A stretch of DNA of 64,000 nt from Archangium violaceum (lineage in GTDB: Bacteria; Myxococcota; Myxococcia; Myxococcales; Myxococcaceae): the NCBI RefSeq assembly GCF_016859125.1, contig NZ_CP069338.1, positions 9,117,501-9,181,500 of the forward strand, in the 5' to 3' direction. Within the stretch, counting starts at the first letter, position 1. Each line of letters begins with the position of its first letter. Below the pieces are notes generated by a model that was given only the letters and a program-made list of their open reading frames with translations, was not told the origin of the DNA and made no database searches. Shown here one piece after another: positions 1 to 12,832 of this stretch. The position numbers and the translations under genes are program-made.

Positions 1-834
1 GTGTGGTGCTCGCGCGAGGAGAACCCGGAGCTGTTCCGTTTCGCCCTCGCGGGCTTCGGCCAGGTGGGCGTCCTGGAGCGGGTGGTGCTGCGGACCCTTC
101 CGGACCGGCCCATCGCCCGGCTGCAGATGAACCGCCACCGCAACTGGCGGGAGATGGTGGACTCGCTGGCGTGGACGGCGGAGTGGGAGGGGCCGGGACC
201 GGAGCTCTTCTTCGCCGAGCACCGCGCGGGGAAGCTCTGGTCCATCTTCGGCACGCAGTTCGAGACGGACGCGGCGGCCCAGGCCTCCTCGCTCCCCGAG
301 CCGCTCGTTCGCATGGCGCGCGAGCGCGTGCACATGGTGGCGAACGTCGACATGCTGCACAAGGGCGAGGACGAGGGGGAGCTCTTCGACCCCGCCATGT
401 ATCGGGTGATGGGCGACTACTGCCTGGATCTGGAGGGGCTGCGGCGTTTCGTGGCCTTCCTCGAGGAGCAGCCCTCGCGCTTCTGGTTGCCCAATCTGGA
501 CCTGGTGCGCCTGCTCGGGCTCGCCCAGCCGAAGGACGGCGGGCGCTGGCCCTTCGACATCCGGGCCGCCTACGGTGGGCCCCAGCGCGTGTATGGCATT
601 GGCCTGTACTACCTGGGCCCGCTCTCGGATCAGGCCGGGCTCGAGGCGGCCCGGCAGGCGCACCGCGCGTGCATGGAGAAGTGCCTGGAGCTGGGCGGCC
701 GTCCCTACCTCTACGGCTGGATGGAGCTGGACCGCGACGCCCGGCAGGCCCTCTACAAGCAGGACTACACGCGGATGCGGGCCCTGCGCCAGGAGTTGGA
801 TCCGCGCGGGCTGCTCAATCCCGAGAGTCTTTGA
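1..834 (+). CDS. FAD-linked oxidoreductase, C-terminal part (5' truncated by window edge)
   Basis: The open frame begins at the first base, so the N-terminal FAD-binding (PCMH-type) half lies outside the window; the GTG at position 1 is probably an internal Val codon. What is visible (277 residues) opens with a segment typical of the end of the FAD domain (WCSREENPELF, then GFGQVGVL) and continues into the substrate-binding domain of cytokinin-dehydrogenase-like oxidases. It ends with DPRGLLNPESL, the usual C-terminus of FAD-linked oxidases. Such enzymes oxidise C-N or C-O bonds with covalent or tight FAD and often act as tailoring enzymes in natural-product clusters; that role here is inference from location. 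The last 20 bases overlap the 3' end of the convergent lanM gene. Confidence 0.8.
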   Translation: MWCSREENPELFRFALAGFGQVGVLERVVLRTLPDRPIARLQMNRHRNWREMVDSLAWTAEWEGPGPELFFAEHRAGKLWSIFGTQFETDAAAQASSLPEPLVRMARERVHMVANVDMLHKGEDEGELFDPAMYRVMGDYCLDLEGLRRFVAFLEEQPSRFWLPNLDLVRLLGLAQPKDGGRWPFDIRAAYGGPQRVYGIGLYYLGPLSDQAGLEAARQAHRACMEKCLELGGRPYLYGWMELDRDARQALYKQDYTRMRALRQELDPRGLLNPESL

Positions 835-3800
835 TCGGCCCCTCCAGGAGCAGCACGGAAGGCACCTGCTCCGGCCGGGCCAGGCGGAGCAGGCCGTGGC
901 CCGTTCCCGCCAGTCCGTGCATCAGCCCCGGCATCTCCAACCCGAAGGGAACGCCACCGAGGCACCCGCGCCGTTCGAGTGACTCCAAGACGCTGGCCGA
1001 GCGCCGCTCCAGCTCGGGAGCCCAGCGCTCGCCGCCCGGTGCCTCGCGCGCCCGCAGCAGGAGCTCCAGCGCGCCGAGGTCACCGTGGCACAGCGAGTGG
1101 TTCTGGCCGAAGCCGTGCGCCCGCACCGTCTCCAGCGCCGCCTCCAGTGCCTCGCGCACGTTCGACTCCCCGTGATGCAGCGCGTGCAGCCGGACCAGCC
1201 CCGCTCCGGACGAGCCCTGGCACCAGGATGTCTCTCCGGGCCCGAAGCGTCGCTCGTTCCCGGTGGCGAGCGCTTCGCGGGCCGCGACGCGAAAACGCTC
1301 CTCTCCGGTGAGCGAGGAGAGCTCCAGGAGAGCCAGCGCGGTGCCATCCGAGCCTCGGGCGAGGTCTGCTTCCACCGGAGCCTTCGGGTTCAACAGCCGC
1401 TCCCCACAGCGCCGTGCCAGCTCCAGCACGCGCGGTGAGGGCGCGGTGCGCTGCAGTGCCACCAGGACGAGGAGCGCCCCCGCGGTCCCGCTGAGAATCC
1501 CGTGCCCGGTGTCCGCGTCGACGAGCGCGGGCAGGTGCTCCGTGGCGAGGGCCTCGGCCTTGCGCAGCAGATCCTCCCGTCCCCAGCGCGCCCCGAGCTG
1601 CGTCAGCACGTAGACGATGCCACCCCAGCCGTCGAAGCCGCCCGCGGAGGTGAGGGGCTCGTGCTCCTGCTCCAGCCGGTGCAGCACCACGGCCACCAGC
1701 CGCCGGGCGGCCTCGCCATGGCGGCCCGTGCCGGCCATCGACTCCAGCTGACCCAGGAAGAGGGCGATGCCCGGCAGCCCCGCGTAGAGATCCAGGCCCA
1801 GCGGGCCCAGCACCCAGCGCCGCTCCCGGCCGAGCGACAGCCCGTACGCGGCTCGGGCGCCCGGCTCCAGGGGCACGAGCTCCAGCAGCCGATCTCCCAG
1901 GGTCACCGCCGCCGCGATGAGGCGATCGGGCGTGGCGGGCGCGGACCCTTCGGATAGCGGATACGTCACGCCCGGCGAGTCCACGTCCGGGACGAGCGTG
2001 GCCATGGAGGCGCGGATGAGCCACGTCTGCCGCTCCAGATCCTCCGCGCCGAACCCGGCCAGGCGCCGCCGCACCAGGGCGAGTCCCTCCTCCTCGAACA
2101 GTCCGGGAATGCGCGCGTCGGGACCGGCCCACACGTCGCGCGAGCCGGGGCGGGTGGTGAAGAGTGGAACGTCCCCGCGCTCCAGCGACTCGCGCTCGGC
2201 GCGGACGATGAGGGGGATGAAGGGGAAGCGCGTGGTGTCCGTCCACAGCCGGTCGAGGAAGCGATCCCTGTCCAGCGCGTCCCGCATCACGTCCGGGTGG
2301 AGGCTGTCCTCCAGCAGCGAGGTGTAGAGGAGGGTGGGGCGCATCAGCACGCGCACCTCGTCATCGCTCATGTGCCACAGGGGACCGTCCTCGGCGAGCA
2401 GCGCGTCGCGTTCGGTGCGCAGCAGCTCGTACATGCGCGTGAAGCCGGCGAGCAGCGCGTCCGTCTGGCGGAGCGTGTCCACGCTCTGTCCCTTCAGGGT
2501 GGGGCGGTTGTGGCCGCCGGGCATCACCTGCCGTTTGCGCGCGATGTGCATCTGATCCGTGCCGGTGCCCTCCATCCGGGGCACGGCGCGGGGGCTCACC
2601 TGTCCGCTGAGCTCGGCCAGGCCGCTGATGTCGATACCGGCGGACTCGGCGTTGGCCCACACGCGCTGGGGGAGCATCCCCACGCGCAGCACCGACTCGA
2701 ACATCTCCTGCCGGGCCTGGTCCGCCGAGCGCGCGTCCACCACCGGCAGGCGCGGGTGCAGCAGCGACTCCAGATCCACCAGCACCGGGTGCTCGCCGGA
2801 GGCGACGATGTTCTGGAAGTGGAAGTCGGTGGCCTCCAGCGCGTAGAGCAGGGCCAGGAGCGAGCCCAGGCGCTCGTAGAAGCGCGCCACCTGCTCCTCC
2901 GTCTCGCAGGGGGCCGTCTCGGCGAACTCCATCCACCCGTAGGTGTGCCGGTCCAGTACCTCCAGCCGCCGGAAGGGCGTGGGGTTGCCTCGGCGATCCA
3001 GCCACGCCAGGAGCTGTTGGAAGTGTGCGTCGATGGCCAGCGAGCGCGGCTTGTAGACGACGTGCAGGCCGGACTCGAAGACGAGCATGCGCACCGAGCG
3101 ACCGCCGCGGTGGACGTCGCCGACGCCCGTGCGCACCCGGACGAGCCGGCCGGGCTCACGTCCCGGGCTGAGGGTCCGCCGCAGCGCTTCCCAGTCCGCG
3201 CACAGCCGCTCCATCAGCTCCAGTGACACCTCCACCCACGTGTCCACCTGCTGGCTCAGGCGCCGCGCCAGCACGGTGTATTCCTCGAAGAGGGCTCGCA
3301 CGGAGGCCGGGTCCTTCAACCGCCGCACGAAGCTGGTGAAGCGCTCCTGCGCGGTGGTGCCCTCGAGCTTCTCCTCCAGACGGGCCACGTTCAGCTCGAG
3401 CACCAGGGTGCGGCCGAGCAGCTGGAGCAACTCCGCGGGCAGTGGGGCGAAGAGGGTGGCCTCGGCGGTCTCGAGCGAGAAGGGCGCCGCGGGGTAGCGC
3501 TCGAGGAGTCCCCGGAGCCCGGCCCGCAGGCGCTCGAGGCCCTCGTGGACGAGCGGTGCCACGGCGGCGAGGAAGCCGTGGTCCGGCCGGCGGCGCACGC
3601 TCTCTGGCAGGGGCAGCTCCGGGAGGGGCTCGCCGTGACGCGCGAGCGCCCGGAGGAAGTCCCGCACCCACCGGGGCACCTCGCCGCTCCGGGCCTGGAG
3701 CACCTCGGGGGGAGTGCCCAGGAGCTGGAGGAAGCGCGCGTCGGTGAGGCCGTCGTTGGCGAGGCGGCGGGCGAAGGTCTCGTCCTGATCCATGGGAGGC

Positions 3801-3943
3801 TGCGAGCGCCAGCGCTTCAGTCGCTTCCCGGCGAGCTCGGCGTCCACGGGCGGTGGAGCCTCGGCGGAGGAGGCGGGGAGGGTGGCCGCGCGCTCCAGGA
3901 GGGTGAGGGCCCGGTACCAGACAGGCTCGGGAGTGGGGCTCAT
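815..3943 (-). CDS. lanM: Class II lanthionine synthetase LanM
   Basis: Bifunctional enzyme (1042 aa from the chosen start) that phosphorylates and eliminates Ser/Thr in a precursor peptide and then closes thioether rings. The N-terminal two thirds is a DUF4135 dehydratase domain: YKPRS with its Lys, FHFQNIV, and VDLESLLHP are the kinase-like motifs. The C-terminal third is a LanC cyclase with GG-rich helical repeats and all three zinc ligands: Cys908 in WCQG, and Cys952-His953 in LCHG. The open frame extends 30 codons upstream to 4033, but that stretch overlaps the 3' end of the preceding gene and is low-complexity Pro/Arg, so I start at the ATG at 3943 (SPTPEPVWYRALTLLERAA), 16 bases after the upstream stop. 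It is the last gene of the lan operon. Substrate is presumably the LanA at 7682-7882. Confidence 0.93.
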   Translation of the reverse strand: MSPTPEPVWYRALTLLERAATLPASSAEAPPPVDAELAGKRLKRWRSQPPMDQDETFARRLANDGLTDARFLQLLGTPPEVLQARSGEVPRWVRDFLRALARHGEPLPELPLPESVRRRPDHGFLAAVAPLVHEGLERLRAGLRGLLERYPAAPFSLETAEATLFAPLPAELLQLLGRTLVLELNVARLEEKLEGTTAQERFTSFVRRLKDPASVRALFEEYTVLARRLSQQVDTWVEVSLELMERLCADWEALRRTLSPGREPGRLVRVRTGVGDVHRGGRSVRMLVFESGLHVVYKPRSLAIDAHFQQLLAWLDRRGNPTPFRRLEVLDRHTYGWMEFAETAPCETEEQVARFYERLGSLLALLYALEATDFHFQNIVASGEHPVLVDLESLLHPRLPVVDARSADQARQEMFESVLRVGMLPQRVWANAESAGIDISGLAELSGQVSPRAVPRMEGTGTDQMHIARKRQVMPGGHNRPTLKGQSVDTLRQTDALLAGFTRMYELLRTERDALLAEDGPLWHMSDDEVRVLMRPTLLYTSLLEDSLHPDVMRDALDRDRFLDRLWTDTTRFPFIPLIVRAERESLERGDVPLFTTRPGSRDVWAGPDARIPGLFEEEGLALVRRRLAGFGAEDLERQTWLIRASMATLVPDVDSPGVTYPLSEGSAPATPDRLIAAAVTLGDRLLELVPLEPGARAAYGLSLGRERRWVLGPLGLDLYAGLPGIALFLGQLESMAGTGRHGEAARRLVAVVLHRLEQEHEPLTSAGGFDGWGGIVYVLTQLGARWGREDLLRKAEALATEHLPALVDADTGHGILSGTAGALLVLVALQRTAPSPRVLELARRCGERLLNPKAPVEADLARGSDGTALALLELSSLTGEERFRVAAREALATGNERRFGPGETSWCQGSSGAGLVRLHALHHGESNVREALEAALETVRAHGFGQNHSLCHGDLGALELLLRAREAPGGERWAPELERRSASVLESLERRGCLGGVPFGLEMPGLMHGLAGTGHGLLRLARPEQVPSVLLLEGPIKDSRD

Positions 3944-3959
3944 GGTGGGGAGTCCGGAG

Positions 3960-5045
3960 TCAGGAGGCGCTGGCCTGGGCGCGGCCCCAGAGGTGCTTGA
4001 GGCCCGGGTAGGCCTTGGCTTCCAGGGGGGCACCCGGTTGGAAGACGAGCTTCACGTGGTTGAGGTAGCGCATGAAGAGGCTCACCGCGCCCGGCCCCTG
4101 CGCCTCGGCGCCCCGGACGAGGTTGGGCGGCCAGCGCTCGCGCTCCGTGCGGTGGTCGGACAGCCCCATCCACGAGAGCAGGGCGTCGCGCTTCTCCGGC
4201 CGGCACAGTCCCCGCCCGACGAGGTGCTCCAGCAGCGGCTTCCACCGCTCCTTGAAGCCACCCAGCGTGAGGGCGTCCACGTAGCACTCCAGGCCCAGCT
4301 TCGGGTACACGCGCTCGCCCACGTCCAACGCCAGGCAGATGCGGTCGGTGTGCGGCGCCAGCGAGGACAGCAGCGCGTCCAGCTCGCCCACGGGCCCGTC
4401 CCAGCCGATCTCCTGGAGGTAGCGCGTGAGCCCGGACGTGGGGATTCCCCGCACGCACAGCCGCAGCGCGTCGATGGGCCGCGAGAGCATCATCCCCACC
4501 TGGTAGACGGAGCCCCCGGGAGGCAGGGCCTCGTAGCAGCGGCGCACGCTGCCGCGCACCGTTGCGGGGCCGGGCTCCCCGCGCATCACCCCGGTGGCCA
4601 GGGCGACGAGGCCCAACGGCTCCGGCTGCTCCTGCCGCGGTCCGAAGAAGATGGCGGGCGTGGGCGCGGTGGGGAGCCGGCCAATCACGTCGAACTCCAG
4701 CCAGAAGTCCTCCACGTCCGCGTGCAGTGCATCCTCCGGGGTGGCCCAGCGCGCGCAGAAGTCGAAGACGCGCCGCCACACCGGGTTCTCCAGGAGCTCG
4801 GCCGGGGGCCGCACGTCCGGATTGCGCCCGGCGAAGGCTCCTCGGGTTCCGTCATGTGTCTGCACGCGCACCAGGAAGTCCGCCCGGGCGTCGGGCTCGC
4901 CCAGCCGGCACTCGAAGCCGGAGCCGCTGCACGGAGGCAGCGCCCGCGCGATGGGGGCGATGTCCGCGAACGCCTCGGGGGAGACGAGCTCGGGCGGCAG
5001 GTGCGGCTCGGCCACCTTCAAGTAGTCCAGCATGGTGTACTTCAT
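3960..5045 (-). CDS. Unrecognised protein of the class II lan operon
   Basis: 361-residue protein beginning MKYTMLDYLKVAEPHLPPEL. The start at 5045 is supported by GGGGAGGA at good spacing; the frame is open further upstream but that overlaps lanT. I do not recognise a named domain. Visible features: a soluble, mixed alpha/beta composition with no signal peptide or membrane segment; a conserved-looking core with ALDVGERVYPKLGLECYV; and many Trp/Phe/Leu patches. It lies between lanT (25 bases upstream) and lanM (16 bases downstream) and is surely co-transcribed. Proteins of similar size and uncertain function are sometimes found beside lanM genes. A role as a tailoring enzyme, chaperone or self-protection factor is all inference. 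Confidence 0.75.
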   Translation of the reverse strand: MKYTMLDYLKVAEPHLPPELVSPEAFADIAPIARALPPCSGSGFECRLGEPDARADFLVRVQTHDGTRGAFAGRNPDVRPPAELLENPVWRRVFDFCARWATPEDALHADVEDFWLEFDVIGRLPTAPTPAIFFGPRQEQPEPLGLVALATGVMRGEPGPATVRGSVRRCYEALPPGGSVYQVGMMLSRPIDALRLCVRGIPTSGLTRYLQEIGWDGPVGELDALLSSLAPHTDRICLALDVGERVYPKLGLECYVDALTLGGFKERWKPLLEHLVGRGLCRPEKRDALLSWMGLSDHRTERERWPPNLVRGAEAQGPGAVSLFMRYLNHVKLVFQPGAPLEAKAYPGLKHLWGRAQASAS

Positions 5046-5070: not shown

Positions 5071-7323
5071 TCATCCCACCTGGCGCCGCGCTCCGGGCGC
5101 GGGCGCTTCCACCAACTGTCCATCCACCAGCGCGGCGTAGTGGCCACCGAGCGCCAGCAATTCCTCGTGCGTGCCACGCTCGACGATGGAGCCCTCGTGC
5201 AGCACCAGGATGAGGTCCGCGCTGCGCACGGTGCTCATCCGGTGCGCGATGACGACGCGGGTGCAGCGCAGCTCGTCCAGGTGCGCGTCCACCTGCCGCT
5301 CCGTCACCACGTCCAGGTGGCTGGTGGCCTCGTCCAGCAGCAGCACGGTGGGGCGCTGGCAGAGGGCGCGCGCCAGGGCCATCCGCTGACGCTGGCCTCC
5401 GGAGAAGTTGGTGCCCCCGGCCGTCACCTTCGTCTCGTAGCCCATGGGCAGGCGGGAGAGCTCGTCGTGCAGGGCCGCCAGCCGCGCCGCCTGCTGCACC
5501 TCTTCCAGCGAGGCGTCCGGGGTGTTGAAGGCGATGTTGTCCCGGATGGAGCCGGTGAAGAGGAAGGGCTCCTGCAGCACCGCGCCGAACTGCGCGCGCA
5601 GCGAGCGGTAGTCCAGCTCGCGCAGGGGCTGGCCGTCGTAGAGGATGTCTCCCTCGGTGGGCTCGTGCAGCCCCAGCAGCAGTGTCCCCAGCGTCGTCTT
5701 CCCGGAGCCGGTGCGCCCCACCAGGGCCACCTTCTGCCCGGGCTCGATGGAGAGGGAGACGTCGCGCAGCACCCACGGGGAGTGGCGGTTGTAGCGGAAG
5801 CTCACGTGGCGCAGCTCCAGCCGCCCCGTGAGCCGGGGGGCAGGCCGCACCCGGGAGACGTCCTGCTCCGGCGCCGCGTCGAAGACATCCACCAGCCGCT
5901 CCAGGTTGGCTCCCACGGATTGGAGCTGCTGCACGGTGGCCACCAGCGAGGCCAGGGGCAGCAGGCAGGCGGCGGCCAGCGCGTGCAGGCCGAGCATCGT
6001 GCCCAGCGTCATCTGCCCCGCCATCACCATCCGCGCGCCCAGCCACAGCAGCGCGAGCGGGCCCAACGTGCGCAGCGTGAGCTGGGCCACTTCCAGCCCG
6101 GCCGCCAGGTGGCTGCGCCGCACGGAGACGTTGAGGTGCTGGGTGAAGACGTCCGTCCAGTGCTCCATCGCGCGCGCCTCACCTCCCGAGGCCTTCAGCG
6201 TGGCGATGCCGGTGATCGACTCGGTGAGGTAGCCCTGCGCCTCGCCCTGGGTGGCGAGGAACTGCTGCATCAGCGCGTGCCGCCGCGTGCTGGTGGTCAC
6301 CACCAGGAGCACCTGCAGCAGGCCCAGCCCGGCCACCGCGGCGCCGAAGAGCGGCGCGCGCGCCAGCAGCAGGGCCAGGTACACCAGCACCAGCCCTCCA
6401 TCGAGCACCACCGAGAGCGCGCGGCCCGCCATCGCCTCGCGGATGATCACGTTGCTGCCCAGGCGCGCCATCAGGTCGCCGATGGTGCGCTGCTGGAAGT
6501 AGCGCAGCGGCAGCGCCACCAGGTGCTCGAACAGGCCGAGCATCATCCGCTGATCCAACCGCGCGTAGAGGTACACCGTCAGCATCGAGCGCAGCCAGGC
6601 CGCCACGAGCTGCGTCAGCACCAGCACCCCGATGCCCAGACCGAACAGGGTGAGCAGATCGTCCGTCGGGCCCGGCAGCAGCCTGTCCACCACGAGCTTC
6701 GTGGCCAGCGGCAGCGCCAGCCCCAGCCCCTGCAGCACCAGGGACACCCCGAGCAGCTGCGCCAGCACCCCACCCAGCAGCTTCGTCCCCACCAACCTCG
6801 CCAGGTGGGCGGGCCACGTCGGGGGCGGCGCGCGCCGCTGCTCGAAACCGGGCCCGGGTTCGAAGGTGAGGACCACGCCGCTCAGGCTCCGCGCGAATGC
6901 CTCGGCCCCGAGGCGCCGCCGGCCCACCGCGGGATCCACGATGTCCACGTGGGAGGGGGACCAACGCTCCACCACCACGTAGTGGTTGGCGTTCCAGTAG
7001 ACGATGGCCGGCAGGGGCACCTGGGCGAAGTGCTCCGGCTTGATGGCGAAGGCCTTGGTGCTCAACCCATGCTGCCTCGCCGCCTCGAGGATCCGCCGGG
7101 CCGTGGTTCCATCCCGCCCCGAATCGAAGAGCTCCCGGCACTCGTTGAGGGTGGTGTTGCGGCCGTGGTAGCCCAGCACCATGGCCAGACAGGCGGCGCT
7201 GCACTCGGTGGCGGTCATCTGCAGGATGACGGGCACCCGGCGCCGGAAGAGGCTCCTCCGGGTCCGCTGCTTCGGAGCGGGTGGGGCCGCGCGCCCGGCC
7301 GGAGTCTGATCACCGCCGCTCAT
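5071..7323 (-). CDS. lanT: Peptidase-containing ABC exporter LanT
   Basis: 750-residue AMS/PCAT-type exporter that cuts double-glycine leaders and exports the mature peptide across the inner membrane. N-terminal C39 peptidase: Gln35 and catalytic Cys41 in QMTATECSAAC, His114 in NANHYVVVE, Asp130 in DIVDP. A six-helix transmembrane region follows (about 160-430). The ATPase has Walker A VGRTGSGKTT, signature FSGGQRQR, Walker B VLLLDEATSHLD and the switch His in VIAHR. The start at 7323 (MSGGDQTP) overlaps the end of the upstream small gene by 14 bases; the longer frame to 7389 lies inside that gene. The matching substrate is the LanA with a GG site encoded upstream in the same operon. Confidence 0.93.
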   Translation of the reverse strand: MSGGDQTPAGRAAPPAPKQRTRRSLFRRRVPVILQMTATECSAACLAMVLGYHGRNTTLNECRELFDSGRDGTTARRILEAARQHGLSTKAFAIKPEHFAQVPLPAIVYWNANHYVVVERWSPSHVDIVDPAVGRRRLGAEAFARSLSGVVLTFEPGPGFEQRRAPPPTWPAHLARLVGTKLLGGVLAQLLGVSLVLQGLGLALPLATKLVVDRLLPGPTDDLLTLFGLGIGVLVLTQLVAAWLRSMLTVYLYARLDQRMMLGLFEHLVALPLRYFQQRTIGDLMARLGSNVIIREAMAGRALSVVLDGGLVLVYLALLLARAPLFGAAVAGLGLLQVLLVVTTSTRRHALMQQFLATQGEAQGYLTESITGIATLKASGGEARAMEHWTDVFTQHLNVSVRRSHLAAGLEVAQLTLRTLGPLALLWLGARMVMAGQMTLGTMLGLHALAAACLLPLASLVATVQQLQSVGANLERLVDVFDAAPEQDVSRVRPAPRLTGRLELRHVSFRYNRHSPWVLRDVSLSIEPGQKVALVGRTGSGKTTLGTLLLGLHEPTEGDILYDGQPLRELDYRSLRAQFGAVLQEPFLFTGSIRDNIAFNTPDASLEEVQQAARLAALHDELSRLPMGYETKVTAGGTNFSGGQRQRMALARALCQRPTVLLLDEATSHLDVVTERQVDAHLDELRCTRVVIAHRMSTVRSADLILVLHEGSIVERGTHEELLALGGHYAALVDGQLVEAPAPGARRQVG

Positions 7324-7537
7324 CGGCCACCCCCTCTTCCTCCTGGAGCGCGAGCACTCCGTCCGCCAGGTATCCAACCGCCAGCGCACCCACGGCGAGC
7401 ACCAGCCCGAGCACGCACCACAGCAGGGTGAAGCCCCGGGGCGAGACGAATCGCGGAAGCTCCAGTACGGCCCGCTCCCGCCGCGCGGGTTTCGCGCCAG
7501 GAGAAGGGAGCGACGGGGGCGATGGCGTCACGGGCAC
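7310..7537 (-). CDS. Small single-pass membrane protein, lan operon
   Basis: 75-residue protein from a GTG start at 7537 preceded by GAGAGGA at 7-base spacing. The frame is open to 7648, but that would place the start upstream of the intrinsic terminator at 7582-7615, so the GTG is preferred. It has a Pro-rich N-terminus (PVTPSPPSLPSPG), a basic stretch (KPARRER), one clear membrane helix (FTLLWCVLGLVLAVGALAVGY) and a short acidic tail, consistent with N-in or anchored topology. It overlaps lanT by 14 bases, indicating translational coupling. No family recognised; an accessory to the exporter or a self-immunity peptide is possible. Confidence 0.6.
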   Translation of the reverse strand: MPVTPSPPSLPSPGAKPARRERAVLELPRFVSPRGFTLLWCVLGLVLAVGALAVGYLADGVLALQEEEGVADERR

Positions 7538-7581
7538 GAGCCAGTCCTCTCGCTGTGGCTCCGGGAGTGCTCCCGGAAGGC

Positions 7582-7615
7582 AAAAAAAAGGCGGGGCGTT
7601 GAAGCGCGCCCCGCC
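7582..7615 (-). terminator. Intrinsic terminator between lanA and the rest of the lan operon
   Basis: Read on the minus strand: a perfect 9-bp GC stem (GGCGGGGCG / CGCCCCGCC with an 8-base loop) followed at once by eight T. It lies 67 bases after the lanA stop and before the small membrane gene. Partial read-through would give far more precursor than enzyme message. Confidence 0.85.
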
Positions 7616-7681
7616 CGAAGCATCATCCGCCCGCGGCGACCACCTCAACAGGCCGCCAGCGTACGGAGGAGGGCATCTCGC

Positions 7682-7882
7682 CTACTCGGCGGCCTCCTCG
7701 GCGGCGACGCAGCTGCACCAGTCGCAGCTGGCGGCGGCGTTACCGCCCACGAGCACGTCGAGGGCCTCGTCGGTCAGCTCCATCATGCCGGCCGGATTCT
7801 CGGGGATCATCTCCCGCTCCGACTCGCTCAGCTCGTTGCGGAACTCCTCGTCCTTCCACGCACGGATCACGTTCTTCGACAT
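7682..7882 (-). CDS. lanA: Class II lanthipeptide precursor, mersacidin/lichenicidin-type leader
   Basis: 66-residue precursor. The leader starts MSKNVIRAWKDEEFR and contains ENPAGMMELTDEALDVLVGG, the hallmark of the mersacidin/lichenicidin leader family, and ends in Gly46-Gly47, the C39 cleavage site. The predicted core is only 19 residues (48-66): NAAASCDWCSCVAAEEAAE. It has two Ser (52, 57), no Thr, and three Cys (53, 56, 58), so at most two lanthionine rings and one free Cys. It ends in an acidic Ala/Glu tail, which is unusual. AGGGAGG sits 9 bases before the ATG. It is the first gene of the operon with lanT and lanM. Confidence 0.9.
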   Translation of the reverse strand: MSKNVIRAWKDEEFRNELSESEREMIPENPAGMMELTDEALDVLVGGNAAASCDWCSCVAAEEAAE

Positions 7883-8013: not shown

Positions 8014-9231
8014 TTACCGGTTAGAACCGGGAGACTGGAAAGGTCCGTCGGGGTTGCCCAGCCGCTCGAGCAGGGCCGCGGCGTGGGCGGGGCCGCCGAA
8101 AGCCGAGAGGGCCCGCTGGAGGCGTTGGGCCTGGGCGCGCGGAGCCGGATCCTCCAGCAGGGAGCGCAGGGCTTCCCGGAGCCGGAGGGGATCGGAGCCG
8201 GAGGAGGGAAGGGCGAGACTCCGGGCGGCACCCGTGCGGACGCAGGCCTCGGCCACGGCGGGGTACTCCAGGGCGAGCTGTGTCTCCTCGTGGAGGAGCA
8301 GCAGCGCGGGGCACCCGTGGGTGAGCGCGCCGAGCGCGGCGGTGGAGGTGGGCTGCGTCACCACCGCCCGCGCCCGCTCGAGAACGAAGGACTCGGGGAC
8401 GTGGGAGCGCACCAGGAAGTGCTCGGGAGCGGTGCGTGCCGAGGCCCGTGGCGCGAGGGCGAGCACCCGGACGGGCTCGTCCCGAAGGGCCTCGACGAAG
8501 GCGGGCCAGGTGGACGGAGGCAGGGTGTCACCGCCGAGGCGGGCGAGGAGGACGGGAAGGTTGCTGGCGGCGGCCTCGTCCAGCCAGTCGCGCAGCGCCG
8601 CGTCGGGCTCCTCGCGGGGCAGTCCGAGGCAGTCTCCCACCAGGTGTACGCGCGCCGGCAGCGAGCCCACGTCTCCTTCCAGCTCGGGCACGGTGCGCAG
8701 CAGCAGCAACTCGCCGATGAGCGAGGTGTCCTGGGGAGCCCGGTCCTCGCGGGGCAGACCACACGTCTGGCGCGCGGCGGCGTAGTGGGGCAGGAGCCCC
8801 TCGTAGAGCCGCACGGCGTGCTCGGTGGCGGCGTCGCGCTGCCCGGGTGGCGGAGGCTCCGCGCGGGGGAAGAAGTAGGCCATCTGTCCCACCACGCCCA
8901 ACGGGAGGTGCTGGCGCTCGGCGGCCAGGGGGACTCCGAAGGCCAGCTGCTGGCCCACCAGCACGTCCGCCGGGAAGCGCGCCAGCGCGGACTCGATGTG
9001 CCGCACCTGCCGCACCATCTCCATCGGGTTCGCGCAGGTGGCCGTCTCGAAGCTCGGGCCATCCCGCTCGCCGCGGGTCAGCCGCTCGAAGCCCTCACGC
9101 CGCAGGAGCGGGGCGAGGGGAGGGCCGGTGACGAAGGCCACCGAGTGCCCGCGCTCACGCAGCGCGCGGGCGATGGCGAGGGCCGCGTGGATGTCCCCCA
9201 CCCGGTCCATGCAGCAGAAGAGGTAACGCAA
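8014..9231 (-). CDS. GT1/MGT-family glycosyltransferase (paralogue 1)
   Basis: 405-residue GT-B fold glycosyltransferase starting at TTG (MRYLFCCMDRVGDIHAALAI). The N-terminal Rossmann domain shows GDIHAALAIARALRERGH and VAFVTG, as in macrolide/glycopeptide-type UDP- or TDP-sugar transferases. The C-terminal domain has the family's ALTHGCPALLLL segment, but the usual acidic/Gln donor-sugar motif is weakly kept (EETQLALEY). It follows its paralogue by 18 bases in a two-gene operon; both proteins begin MRYLFC. The acceptor is unknown. The neighbouring lanthipeptide and the NRPS lipopeptide (which may contain Tyr) are the obvious candidates; this is inference. Confidence 0.82.
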   Translation of the reverse strand: MRYLFCCMDRVGDIHAALAIARALRERGHSVAFVTGPPLAPLLRREGFERLTRGERDGPSFETATCANPMEMVRQVRHIESALARFPADVLVGQQLAFGVPLAAERQHLPLGVVGQMAYFFPRAEPPPPGQRDAATEHAVRLYEGLLPHYAAARQTCGLPREDRAPQDTSLIGELLLLRTVPELEGDVGSLPARVHLVGDCLGLPREEPDAALRDWLDEAAASNLPVLLARLGGDTLPPSTWPAFVEALRDEPVRVLALAPRASARTAPEHFLVRSHVPESFVLERARAVVTQPTSTAALGALTHGCPALLLLHEETQLALEYPAVAEACVRTGAARSLALPSSGSDPLRLREALRSLLEDPAPRAQAQRLQRALSAFGGPAHAAALLERLGNPDGPFQSPGSNR

Positions 9232-9249: not shown

Positions 9250-10455
9250 TCACGAGGCGGCGACACGAGGCGGACGCTGGCGTTGGCGGCCGAGCTCCTC
9301 CAGCAGATCCGCGGCGCGAGCGGGCCCGTCCACCCGGGCCAGGGCCTCCTGGAGCCGCCGGGCGTTCCCGGCGAGCCCGGGCGTCGCGAGCAGCTCCTCC
9401 ACGGCCGCGCGGATGGACTGGGGCGTGAGATCGCCGTCGGTGCGGCGCAGGAGGTTGAGGGCGGCACCGGCGCGCCGGCAGCGCTCGGCGGTGGAGTACT
9501 GCTCTCCTCCGGCGACGATGAGCAGGGCGGGCAACCCGTGGGTGAGGGCCCCGAGCACCACCGTCGTGGTCCCGCTGGCGATGATGCCGCGGGCCCGGCG
9601 CAGGATGGCGGACTGCGGCACGTGGCGGCGGACGAGGAAGTGGGGCGGGAACGTCTCCTCCTCGATGCCCGGCCTGCGGATGGCCGCCACCACCCGCACG
9701 GGCAGTTCCTTCAGGGCCTCCACCACCAGGGGCCAGAAGTCGCAGAACTCCAGGTCCCTCGCCGGCTGCACGTAGAAGAGGGGTTGGCCGGAGGCCACCG
9801 CGTCCTCCAACCACCGCTCCAGCTCGGGATCGGGCGGCGCCTCCGGCGGCTCCCAGAGGCAGTCTCCCACCATGCGCACGCGCTCTGGCAGGGCCTCCAC
9901 GTTCCCCTCGAGCTCCGGCACCGTGCGCAGCAGCAGCAGCTCTCCGATGAGGGGCGTCTCGCGATAGGGCGGAGTGGAGGAGGGCAGGCCAACGGCGGCG
10001 CGTGCTTCGTTGTAGCGGGCCAGCAGTCCGTCATGCAGGGAGGCGGCGCGCCGATCGAGCGGCTCCGGTCCCGGAGGCCCGTCCCTGACGGGGAAGATGT
10101 ACGAGGCCAGGCCCAGGCTCGCCACGGGCAGGCCCTGGCGCTCCGCGGCGAGGAGCGGCCCGAGCGCGAGTTGCTGGCCCACGAGCACGTCCGGGTGGAA
10201 GCGCCCGAGCGCGTACTCCACGTGCCGGGCCTGCCTCACCATCTCCGCCGGCTGGGCGAAGGTCTCGATCTGGAAGCTCTTCCCGTCCTGCTCGCCCCGG
10301 GGAATGCGCTCGAAGCCGGAGTCCCGCACGAAGCTCGCGAAGGTCTGGCCGGTGACGAAGGCCACCTCGTGTGAGCGCCGCCGCAGCTCGCGTGCGATGG
10401 CGAGGGCCGGGAAGAGGAAGCCGGGACTGTCAAGCGAGCAGAACAGGTAGCGCAC
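9250..10455 (-). CDS. GT1/MGT-family glycosyltransferase (paralogue 2)
   Basis: 401-residue GT-B glycosyltransferase from a GTG start at 10455 with GGAGG 6 bases upstream. N-terminus MRYLFCSLDSPGFLFPALAI; C-terminal donor domain with ALTHGLPALLIVAGGEQYSTAE and GAALNLL, better preserved than in its downstream paralogue. Shared internal motifs with paralogue 1 (ADVLVGQQLAFG against PDVLVGQQLALG, and LIGELLLLRTVPELEG in both) show tandem gene duplication. The pair may add two sugars to one scaffold or act as a heteromeric pair; not testable from sequence alone. Confidence 0.85.
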   Translation of the reverse strand: MRYLFCSLDSPGFLFPALAIARELRRRSHEVAFVTGQTFASFVRDSGFERIPRGEQDGKSFQIETFAQPAEMVRQARHVEYALGRFHPDVLVGQQLALGPLLAAERQGLPVASLGLASYIFPVRDGPPGPEPLDRRAASLHDGLLARYNEARAAVGLPSSTPPYRETPLIGELLLLRTVPELEGNVEALPERVRMVGDCLWEPPEAPPDPELERWLEDAVASGQPLFYVQPARDLEFCDFWPLVVEALKELPVRVVAAIRRPGIEEETFPPHFLVRRHVPQSAILRRARGIIASGTTTVVLGALTHGLPALLIVAGGEQYSTAERCRRAGAALNLLRRTDGDLTPQSIRAAVEELLATPGLAGNARRLQEALARVDGPARAADLLEELGRQRQRPPRVAAS

Positions 10456-11920: not shown

Positions 11921-12832
11921 TCAGTCGAGGAAGCGTCTGCACCAGCGCCGAGCCTCGTTCTCGGTGAGGCGAAGTGACGTGTACCGGGGTGGCGCAGCGG
12001 ACACCGTGGTTCGTGAGAGGAAAAGCGGCTCGAGCCAGGGCTCCAGCACCTGGGCGAGCTCGCGGTACGCGGGAAGGGTCTTCTCGGTGGTCAGGTCTCC
12101 CGCCTCCGGTCCTTCTCCAAGAGAGACAATGACGCGCTCATTGACGAGTTCCTCCAGCATCGTCTCGGCTGAGCGCAGCCGAGAACGGAGGGCCATGGCG
12201 CCGCCGAGCCGAGCGAGGAGGGGCGGGCCGAAGAAGTTGAGCCAGCGTGCCCCAGAGGCGAAGGGGAGCTTGGACGCCATGTCGAGAGCCAACTCGCGCA
12301 CCCGCGCAGGCCCGTGCTCTTCGAGATATTCGGTGGGAAGTATCGCGGTCAGCAGGCTCACCGAATGTTCGGGGGGATTGCTCCAGGGAATGCGAGCCCG
12401 GTACTCGAGTTGGTAGCCATTGGGGTTGTCGATGCCCCCGGTGAAGAGGAGCCCTCGTTCAAAGCCTCGCTTCTCGATTTCCCTCCGCTCAGAAGAATCG
12501 TAGTCCTCGGGGAAGGATCACCGCTTCGTGGCCTGTAGAAGGCGGCTCACCCAGGTCCACCGCTCCTCCGTCAGGCGGGAGCCTTCGTCATGTGAGAAGT
12601 GAACGGAGTTGATGGTCCTGGGCCCCTGGCCAACCGCAATTATATAACTGTCGATGGCGTGGCTGACCCCACGGGAGAGGTCAGGATGATCGTGTGGCAT
12701 GTGGAAAGCGACACGGACCACCTCTCGTGCGAGCAATTCTCGTCGCGGGCGAGGCGGCTCTCCGTCGTAGAGCTTCCAATGGCCCGGGGGAATGCCGCGA
12801 AGGCGAAGGCGGGGGTAGTGGCCAGTCATCAT
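11921..12832 (-). pseudogene. DUF3396 (type VI immunity family-like) gene with one in-frame TGA
   Basis: A single continuous minus-strand frame of 304 codons interrupted by one TGA at 12520-12518. The first part (104 aa) has the DUF3396 N-terminal features: a VVRVAFHMPHDHPDLSRGV segment and DSYIIAVG. After the TGA the same frame runs on without any stop through GGIDNPNGYQLEYRARIPW, LPTEYLEEHGPARVRELA, LARLGGAMALRSRL and LPAYRELAQVLEPWL to RRWCRRFLD, the family's typical C-terminus. Family members are usually about 300 aa, so the two fragments are one gene. A single base change (CGA or TGG to TGA) explains it. DUF3396 proteins have been linked to type VI secretion immunity; whether this one is functional is doubtful. 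Confidence 0.75.

What the first reader, a model, noticed from the sequence alone, without database searches (positions are those of the whole stretch)
7682..7882. Very short class II core with adjacent Ser-Cys pairs and an acidic tail
The 19-residue core has only two Ser and three Cys packed in seven residues (SCDWCSC) and then Ala/Glu only. Ser52 cannot easily ring with neighbouring Cys53, so Ser52-Cys56 and Ser57-Cys53 would interlock, leaving a free Cys58. That would be an unusual compact topology, and the negative tail argues against a membrane-pore mode of action.
Basis: partly seen in the sequence, partly recalled or inferred. Interest (0 to 1): 0.62.

Follow-up and report, generated by a model that had tools for sequence, protein, structure and literature searches.

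The report
Myxobacterial lanthipeptide with likely prenylated tryptophan
A soil myxobacterium encodes a tiny, probably double-ring peptide whose one tryptophan, kept in all the relatives found, is probably decorated with a terpene-type lipid by a neighbouring enzyme that sequence libraries do not recognise.

Summary
In detail: window 7682-7882 (-) encodes a 66-aa class II lanthipeptide precursor with a mersacidin/lichenicidin-type leader (67.9 bits, cut-off 23.5) and core NAAASCDWCSCVAAEEAAE. Of 96 genomes of the family, 11 carry this precursor type (12 copies). All 12 keep S-C-x3-S-(x)-C around one Trp; the third Cys moves or is missing, and five genomes stop right after SCDWCSC, without the tail. 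Cys53-Ser57 is the connectivity shown for the cyanobacterial MppE (PMC11791876), so I predict nested rings Cys53-Ser57 and Ser52-Cys58 with Cys56 free. Trp is in 10 of 10 precursors with it in cis, and in 13 of 14 LanM-linked loci with a readable precursor outside myxobacteria. A glycosyltransferase-like gene occurs in 9 of the 11 genomes and 0 of the 85 others. Prenylated lanthipeptides are in print (MppC; PMC12715784). This is a new variant: another leader family, a nested compact core, and a group in which my paper searches listed none.

The parts
7682..7882 (-). LanA: 66-aa class II lanthipeptide precursor, mersacidin/lichenicidin-type leader
7742..7882 (-). leader, residues 1-47, ending in Gly-Gly
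   Evidence: TIGR03898 match to residues 4-47
7709..7729 (-). SCDWCSC (Ser52-Cys58), the conserved ring-forming unit around Trp55
7685..7708 (-). VAAEEAAE tail, not conserved; five genomes stop right before it
7310..7543 (-). small ORF (77 aa, one hydrophobic stretch), start uncertain, overlaps the LanT start; a similar stretch found in L035, L036 and L045
   Evidence: the longer reading 7310-7648 has no family match
5071..7323 (-). LanT: C39 peptidase / ABC exporter that should cut after Gly-Gly
3960..5045 (-). ORFX: predicted ABBA-fold indole (Trp) prenyltransferase, 361 aa, no Pfam or NCBIfam match
815..4033 (-). LanM: class II lanthionine synthetase; start codon uncertain
   Evidence: TIGR03897 815.7 bits; DUF4135 + LANC_like; conserved motifs
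8014..9231 (-). GT1: GT-B-fold glycosyltransferase-like protein, found only in genomes with this cluster among 96 searched
9250..10455 (-). GT2: second copy, 51% identical to GT1

Best explanation
A class II lanthipeptide pathway with a prenylated tryptophan. LanM dehydrates Ser52 and Ser57 and adds Cys thiols to them (inferred from family). The most likely product is a nested bicycle: inner ring Cys53-Ser57 and outer ring Ser52-Cys58, with Trp55 held in the middle and Cys56 left as a thiol (inferred from conservation and from MppE). ORFX, an ABBA-fold prenyltransferase, then puts an isoprenoid on the Trp55 indole while the leader is still attached; timing, donor and position are inferred from MppC. 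LanT cuts after Gly47 and exports the peptide (inferred). The C-terminal tail is probably dispensable or trimmed. The GT-B protein is a dedicated partner of the pathway, possibly a sugar transferase. The prenyl group would make a small acidic peptide membrane-seeking, so a lipopeptide signal or antibiotic is more likely than a classical pore-former (guess).
For: Precursor, LanT and LanM by family models and retained LanM motifs. ORFX: AlphaFold pLDDT 90.5, five helix-helix-strand-strand repeats. Foldseek's 11 matches at E<=0.001 are all ABBA prenyltransferases. VIA-align best is MpnD 4yla, Z 17.1, rmsd 4.3, 293 aligned, and all 50 rows shown are ABBA enzymes, most of them acting on Trp or other indoles (fold class of the named entries recalled). 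E45, R47, D56, E117, D119, R189, R195 and D241 are conserved in 34-35 of 35 relatives. Trp in the core: 10 of 10 precursors with ORFX in cis, 13 of 105 without; 2 of those 13 are the same precursor type. Cyanobacterial and Azospirillum relatives beside LanM: Trp in a core in 13 of 14 loci with a recognisable precursor; in 8 of these 13 at least one precursor ends in Trp. Six loci with an ORFX relative and no LanM in the stretch read have a small precursor with no Cys but with Trp, AQELS.TQAW, in 6 of 6. Ring: C(i)-S(i+4) enclosing Trp, with Ser before and Cys after, in 12 of 12 cores, equal to MppE Cys79-Ser83. MppC geranylates Trp82 of MppE.
Against: No product is known. L040 (G032) has the Trp core, LanM and the GT gene but no ORFX in the stretch read (10.5 kb on one side of LanA, 6.3 kb on the other); its genome has an ORFX relative of another subgroup about 120 kb away. 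In G020 the contig ends before the ORFX position (L039), and one search found no ORFX in that genome. The 12 cores are related, and so are several of the cyanobacterial loci, so the counts are not independent events. One LanM-linked locus (L241, Nostoc) has no Trp in any core; of 8 loci without LanM only 2 have Trp and 4 end in Tyr. No sequence-level match of ORFX to PDB or to Trp_DMAT members. The window's LanM lacks about 20 residues before its zinc-site Cys and has Gln after it where the nine other LanMs aligned have His. Nothing here proves the ring pairing.
Confidence: 0.72

Rival explanations
1. One reading: interlocked rings Ser52-Cys56 and Cys53-Ser57, with Cys58 free, and no indole modification.
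For: Cys56 is present in the six SCDWCSC cores; Ser52-Cys56 is also an i,i+4 pair.
Against: A Cys right after Trp is absent from the other 6 of 12 cores (L040, L041, both L042, L043, L044), while the last Cys is present in 12 of 12. The ORFX fold and its coupling to Trp are ignored.
Confidence: 0.15
2. Two vicinal rings, Ser52-Cys53 and Ser57-Cys58, with Trp55 in an open linker.
For: Ser-Cys is adjacent on the N-side in 12 of 12 and on the C-side in 10 of 12 cores; a vicinal ring is known in mersacidin (recalled).
Against: The two L042 cores have Ser-Gly-Cys on the C-side; MppM makes the i,i+4 ring on the comparable MppE core.
Confidence: 0.2
3. The Trp is kept for glycosylation rather than prenylation (as in the N-glycosylated Trp of NAI-112, recalled), or for both.
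For: The GT-B gene is found in 9 of 11 cluster genomes and 0 of 85 others, in two gene orders. L040 has GT but no ORFX in the stretch read. The model matches CalG4, CalG1 and GtfB.
Against: L041 and L042 have ORFX and Trp but no GT in the stretches read, and none in their genomes at E<=1e-20. The usual His-Gly-Gly donor motif is not conserved in the GT family (motif recalled).
Confidence: 0.25
4. ORFX is an ABBA-fold protein that has lost catalysis, or modifies another substrate (a small molecule or a different residue).
For: Fold alone shows no function; relatives occur with Tyr-ending precursors.
Against: Charged barrel residues are nearly invariant; ORFX lies with LanA and LanM in 9 genomes.
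Confidence: 0.15

Closest known systems
MppE/MppM/MppC of Moorena producens (PMC11791876, passages; PMC12715784, whole text read)
   Same: Class II LanM; very short core; Cys(i)-Ser(i+4) lanthionine around Trp; ABBA prenyltransferase gene in the cluster, acting on Trp.
   Different: MppE has a 77-aa Nif11-type leader and a 7-aa core ACWRWSG with one ring; its cluster also has a halogenase, a terpene synthase, an oxygenase and arginases. Here the leader is of the mersacidin/lichenicidin type, a second Ser/Cys pair encloses the first, there is a third Cys, and GT-B genes are linked.
NctPC-type prenyltransferase/terpene cyclase fusions (Hubrich 2024, not held; described in PMC13290415, one section and passages)
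   Same: ABBA-fold enzyme acting on Trp; low similarity to cyanobactin enzymes.
   Different: ORFX is a stand-alone domain; no cyclase family was matched in the neighbouring ORFs tested. Fused relatives exist in other myxobacteria.
Mersacidin/lichenicidin class II lantibiotics
   Same: Leader family (TIGR03898), LanM, C39 exporter.
   Different: Short core around a Trp, linked to a prenyltransferase. The other LanM-linked cores of the survey have a median length of 26 residues (16-48).
LanII-2B of Archangium violaceum (PMC9576775, one section and passages)
   Same: Myxobacterial class II lanthipeptide, two rings, one free Cys.
   Different: It has four Ser/Thr and a methyllanthionine, so it is another peptide; the window core has no Thr.
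ComX and kawaguchipeptin (recalled)
   Same: Prenylated Trp in a small ribosomal peptide.
   Different: No lanthionine rings.

Membership tests
Class II lanthipeptide, mersacidin/lichenicidin leader family | Leader matches TIGR03898 above cut-off | tested here: met
   67.9 bits vs 23.5
Class II lanthipeptide, mersacidin/lichenicidin leader family | LanM with dehydratase and cyclase domains and zinc ligands | tested here: met
   TIGR03897 815.7 bits; DUF4135 and LANC_like; WC, CHG, DxHxxN and DLE kept (roles recalled); Gln in place of His after WC
Class II lanthipeptide, mersacidin/lichenicidin leader family | Core Ser/Thr and Cys that form lanthionine | not testable with these tools
   Ser52, Ser57 and three Cys are present; ring formation needs chemistry
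Lanthipeptide prenyltransferase (MppC type) | ABBA barrel fold | tested here: met
Lanthipeptide prenyltransferase (MppC type) | Gene in a cluster with LanM and a Trp-containing core | tested here: met
   9 genomes, 10 of 10 cores
Lanthipeptide prenyltransferase (MppC type) | Sequence homology to MppC | not tested
   MppC sequence not obtained; ORFX relatives were found in 29 of 388 cyanobacterial genomes, but no MppE-like core in the stretches held
Lanthipeptide prenyltransferase (MppC type) | Leader-dependent transfer of a prenyl group to Trp | not testable with these tools
   needs an enzyme assay
Trp_DMAT (PF11991) indole prenyltransferases | Match to the family model or profile | tested here: not met
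   no Pfam match; hhalign against 10 myxobacterial members, probability 0.5%
GT1 / macrolide-type glycosyltransferase | GT-B fold | tested here: met
   pLDDT 84.6; CalG4 E 9.3e-22, TM 0.71
GT1 / macrolide-type glycosyltransferase | His-Gly-Gly donor-binding motif and N-terminal catalytic His/Asp (recalled) | tested here: not met
   read by eye in nine aligned proteins: donor motif replaced in nine of nine; the N-terminal position is Asp in GT1 and Phe or Ser in the other eight

The most novel reading that the evidence does not exclude
The product is a nested-bicycle lanthipeptide that cages a single tryptophan carrying both a prenyl group and a sugar: a lipo-glyco-lanthipeptide of myxobacteria. 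In a sister lineage the same prenyltransferase clade has dropped the lanthionine machinery altogether and modifies a linear 11-residue Trp peptide beside a terpene cyclase. The Trp, not the rings, would then be the evolutionary constant of the family.
Probability: 0.25. Interest if true: 0.78.

Novelty: new variant of a known kind. Interest (0 to 1): 0.58.

Why it matters
It turns a puzzling core into a concrete, testable structure: two rings around one Trp, plus a lipid. If true, it extends prenylation in LanM clusters from cyanobacteria to myxobacteria and to a different leader family. It puts a probable function on an unannotated protein family with matches in 29 of 195 genomes of the phylum and 29 of 388 cyanobacterial genomes. 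The family spans lanthipeptide, terpene-cyclase and linear-peptide contexts, so it would be a good system for asking how such enzymes recognise leaders.

Tried and rejected
Sequence searches for ORFX's function: no Pfam match for the window protein, only two single-member weak matches among 9 relatives, no NCBIfam match, only weak unrelated PDB sequence matches, no profile match to Trp_DMAT members. The fold was what worked.

Identity with the published LanII-2B of Archangium violaceum was considered because it also has two rings and one free Cys; rejected because it has four Ser/Thr and a methyllanthionine, which the window core cannot give. Cores such as ITGEPTSAYCTPCPPKYCY (L137, L139, L148) fit it better.

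A scan of all loci held for MppE-like cores (CW.WS, GGACW or CWRW, six frames) gave only matches that I judged unrelated, so ORFX was not tied to MppC by sequence. The first genome-contig scan with LanA found no relative. Plasmid LanA relatives (Dolichospermum, Trichormus) have different cores. The paper Hubrich 2024 is not held.

Limits and rows dropped. The survey read about 7 kb on each side of a precursor, less at contig ends. The tree (56 rows) left out L103 and several matches with a stop, of partial length or without a locus (among them L214, L232, L236, L237, L239). One search read 35 loci; L196=L241 and L198=L257 are the same records and are counted once. Of the 29 cyanobacterial genomes, G266 was not fetched. 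In alignment A3 my coordinates cut L037 and L043 short; the full cores are. In one search at most 19 first-look candidates per genome were scored (all were scored for the 12 genomes); one search scored 10 per genome and five. The start of the small ORFs was assigned by eye. An in-frame stop in the L037 LanM stretch lies at residue 14 of 1095, which I take to be before the start.

Full report
What was checked. It matches the mersacidin/lichenicidin family model at 67.9 bits (cut-off 23.5). The core after Gly47 is NAAASCDWCSCVAAEEAAE. The window lies in a 12.68 Mb single-contig genome; one same-genus genome, G002, has the length that I recall for Archangium gephyra, so the genus is probably Archangium (recalled, not tested).

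Surroundings. On the same strand, in order: two glycosyltransferase-like genes (10455-9250, 9231-8014), LanA, a small hydrophobic ORF, a C39-ABC exporter (7323-5071), an unannotated 361-aa protein here called ORFX (5045-3960), and LanM (4033-815). LanM keeps the WC, CHG, DxHxxN and DLE motifs (their roles are recalled). Unlike the nine other LanMs aligned, it lacks about 20 residues before the WC motif and has Gln, not His, after it. Of ten neighbouring ORFs tested with Pfam, none matched a terpene cyclase.

Relatives of the precursor. A search of 96 genomes of the family gave 115 matches in 36 genomes. I fetched the surroundings of all 115 and read every core. Twelve precursors in 11 genomes share the window's core type: six with SCDWCSC (the window; Myxococcus eversor, qinghaiensis and dinghuensis; G063; G020), then SCGWSSC (G032), SCCWSSC (Hyalangium versicolor), SCMCWSGC and SCVCWSGC (G042), SSCCWESC (G033) and SSCGWDSC (Corallococcus exercitus) (species names). 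In five genomes the stop codon follows SCDWCSC at once. All 12 have Ser, then Cys(i), Ser(i+4), and a Cys within two residues, with Trp inside (12 of 12). Shuffling single cores gives the C-x3-S pattern around Trp in 5 to 18% of shuffles; the cores are related, so this is not a joint probability. The extra Cys follows the Trp in six cores, directly precedes it in four, and is missing in two.

Ring inference. In MppE of Moorena producens the LanM-made ring joins Cys79 and Ser83 of ACWRWSG (PMC11791876, passages): the same direction and spacing as Cys53-Ser57. The remaining invariant pair is Ser52 and Cys58. Hence the predicted nested rings, with Cys56 spare. This is inference; MS/MS would decide it.

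ORFX. AlphaFold with nine sequences gave pLDDT 90.5 and five alpha-alpha-beta-beta repeats. Foldseek's best matches include DMATS1, Orf2 of Streptomyces CL190, 6-dimethylallyltryptophan synthase and AmbP1 (E 3.4e-5 to 7.6e-4); VIA-align gives Z 17.1 to MpnD, and all 50 rows shown are ABBA prenyltransferases (fold class of the named entries recalled). Sequence libraries see nothing of use. In 35 relatives the residues E45, R47, D56, E117, D119, R189, R195 and D241 are conserved in 34-35.

Link to tryptophan. In the survey 10 of 10 precursors with ORFX in cis have Trp in the core, against 13 of 105 without (Fisher p 1.5e-8). Two of the 13 are the same precursor type: L039, whose contig ends before the ORFX position, and L040, which lacks ORFX in the stretch read (10.5 kb on one side, 6.3 kb on the other). 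G032, the genome of L040, has an ORFX relative of another subgroup about 120 kb away on the same contig; in G020, the genome of L039, no ORFX was found. The ten are related, so the p-value overstates the case. Support comes from elsewhere too. ORFX relatives are in 29 of 388 cyanobacterial genomes. Of 16 unique non-myxobacterial LanM-linked loci read, 14 have a recognisable precursor and 13 of these have Trp in a core; in 8 of the 13 at least one precursor ends in Trp (for example 6 of 6 in L246 and 6 of 6 in L254). Several of these loci are close relatives of each other. The exception is L241 (Nostoc). Among 8 loci without LanM but with a precursor, 2 have Trp and 4 end in Tyr. In six Archangium-group loci (L077-L082), with no LanM in the stretch read, an ORFX relative that the tree places inside the myxobacterial lanthipeptide group follows an ORF of about 39 aa, such as ...NLTELSDEALDDLISGGAQELSATQAWE, in 6 of 6: the leader tail and the Trp are kept and there is no Cys. 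The upstream gene, examined in one of the six, has a squalene-hopene-cyclase-type domain.

Glycosyltransferase-like genes. In 96 genomes the GT gene (E<=1e-20) occurs in 9, all among the 11 with this core type, and in none of the 85 others (Fisher p 4e-11). It lies before LanA in six genomes (the window, L035-L039) and behind LanM in three (L040, L043 and L209; in the last case the LanM gene appears to be split over two contigs, L044 and L209). M. qinghaiensis has a second copy about 80 kb away. The model is GT-B, nearest to CalG4. The usual donor-binding and catalytic residues are not conserved (motifs recalled), so sugar transfer is only a possibility.

What is known. Lanthipeptide prenylation is in print: MppC geranylates Trp82 of MppE at indole C5, needs the leader, and prefers the ring-closed peptide (PMC12715784, whole text read). 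A review describes NctPC, an ABBA prenyltransferase fused to a terpene cyclase that puts C20 on Trp (PMC13290415, one section and passages). My ten searches of the held library listed no paper whose title or opening abstract names a prenylated myxobacterial lanthipeptide. Besides the papers named here I saw passages of PMC9576775 and PMC9231227; for the rest only listings. Most subscription journals are not held, and supplements could not be read.

Verdict. The reading as a compact interlocked peptide is half right. The best-supported account is a nested, Trp-caging class II lanthipeptide that is prenylated on Trp55, a new variant of a kind known from cyanobacteria. Shown: precursor, LanM and LanT by family, predicted fold of ORFX, conservation, gene linkage. 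Inferred: ring pairing, prenyl donor and site, role of the GT genes, bioactivity.

Noticed in passing
L077-L082 (for example L081:10204-10323, minus strand): A conserved precursor of about 39 aa with a lanthipeptide-like leader tail, no Cys and an invariant Trp lies just upstream of an ORFX relative in 6 of 6 loci; a squalene-hopene-cyclase-type gene is upstream in the one examined (L081). Probably a linear isoprenoid-Trp peptide pathway derived from a lanthipeptide pathway.
   Followed up: partly
L061-L063, L065-L069: ORFX relatives in open frames of about 700-830 aa; in the four printed (L061-L063, L069) they sit behind about 350 or more residues that look by eye like an alpha/alpha-toroid terpene cyclase; compare NctPC.
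   Followed up: partly
L083:8964-9252 and L084:12573-12735 (plus strand); L266:12085-12381 (minus strand): Other compact Trp cores beside ORFX relatives: EGSCTWGANCGK in two myxobacteria (LanM in L083; only a short weak match at the end of L084) and AGCTWGVSCQSSSN in a cyanobacterium with LanM and two ORFX relatives.
   Followed up: partly
L243, L252, L264, L103: Loci with an ORFX relative but no LanM seen have precursors ending in Tyr, suggesting a Tyr-directed subgroup.
   Followed up: no
L198:8983-10776: An ORFX relative in Pseudanabaena is annotated as '2OG-Fe(II) oxygenase'; public annotation may mislead for this family.
   Followed up: no
window 11921-12361 (-): A protein matching TsiV, type VI immunity for VRR-NUC (99.5 bits), upstream of the cluster.
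   Followed up: no
L137, L139, L148: Core ITGEPTSAYCTPCPPKYCY (four Ser/Thr, three Cys) fits the published LanII-2B data better than the window peptide does.
   Followed up: no
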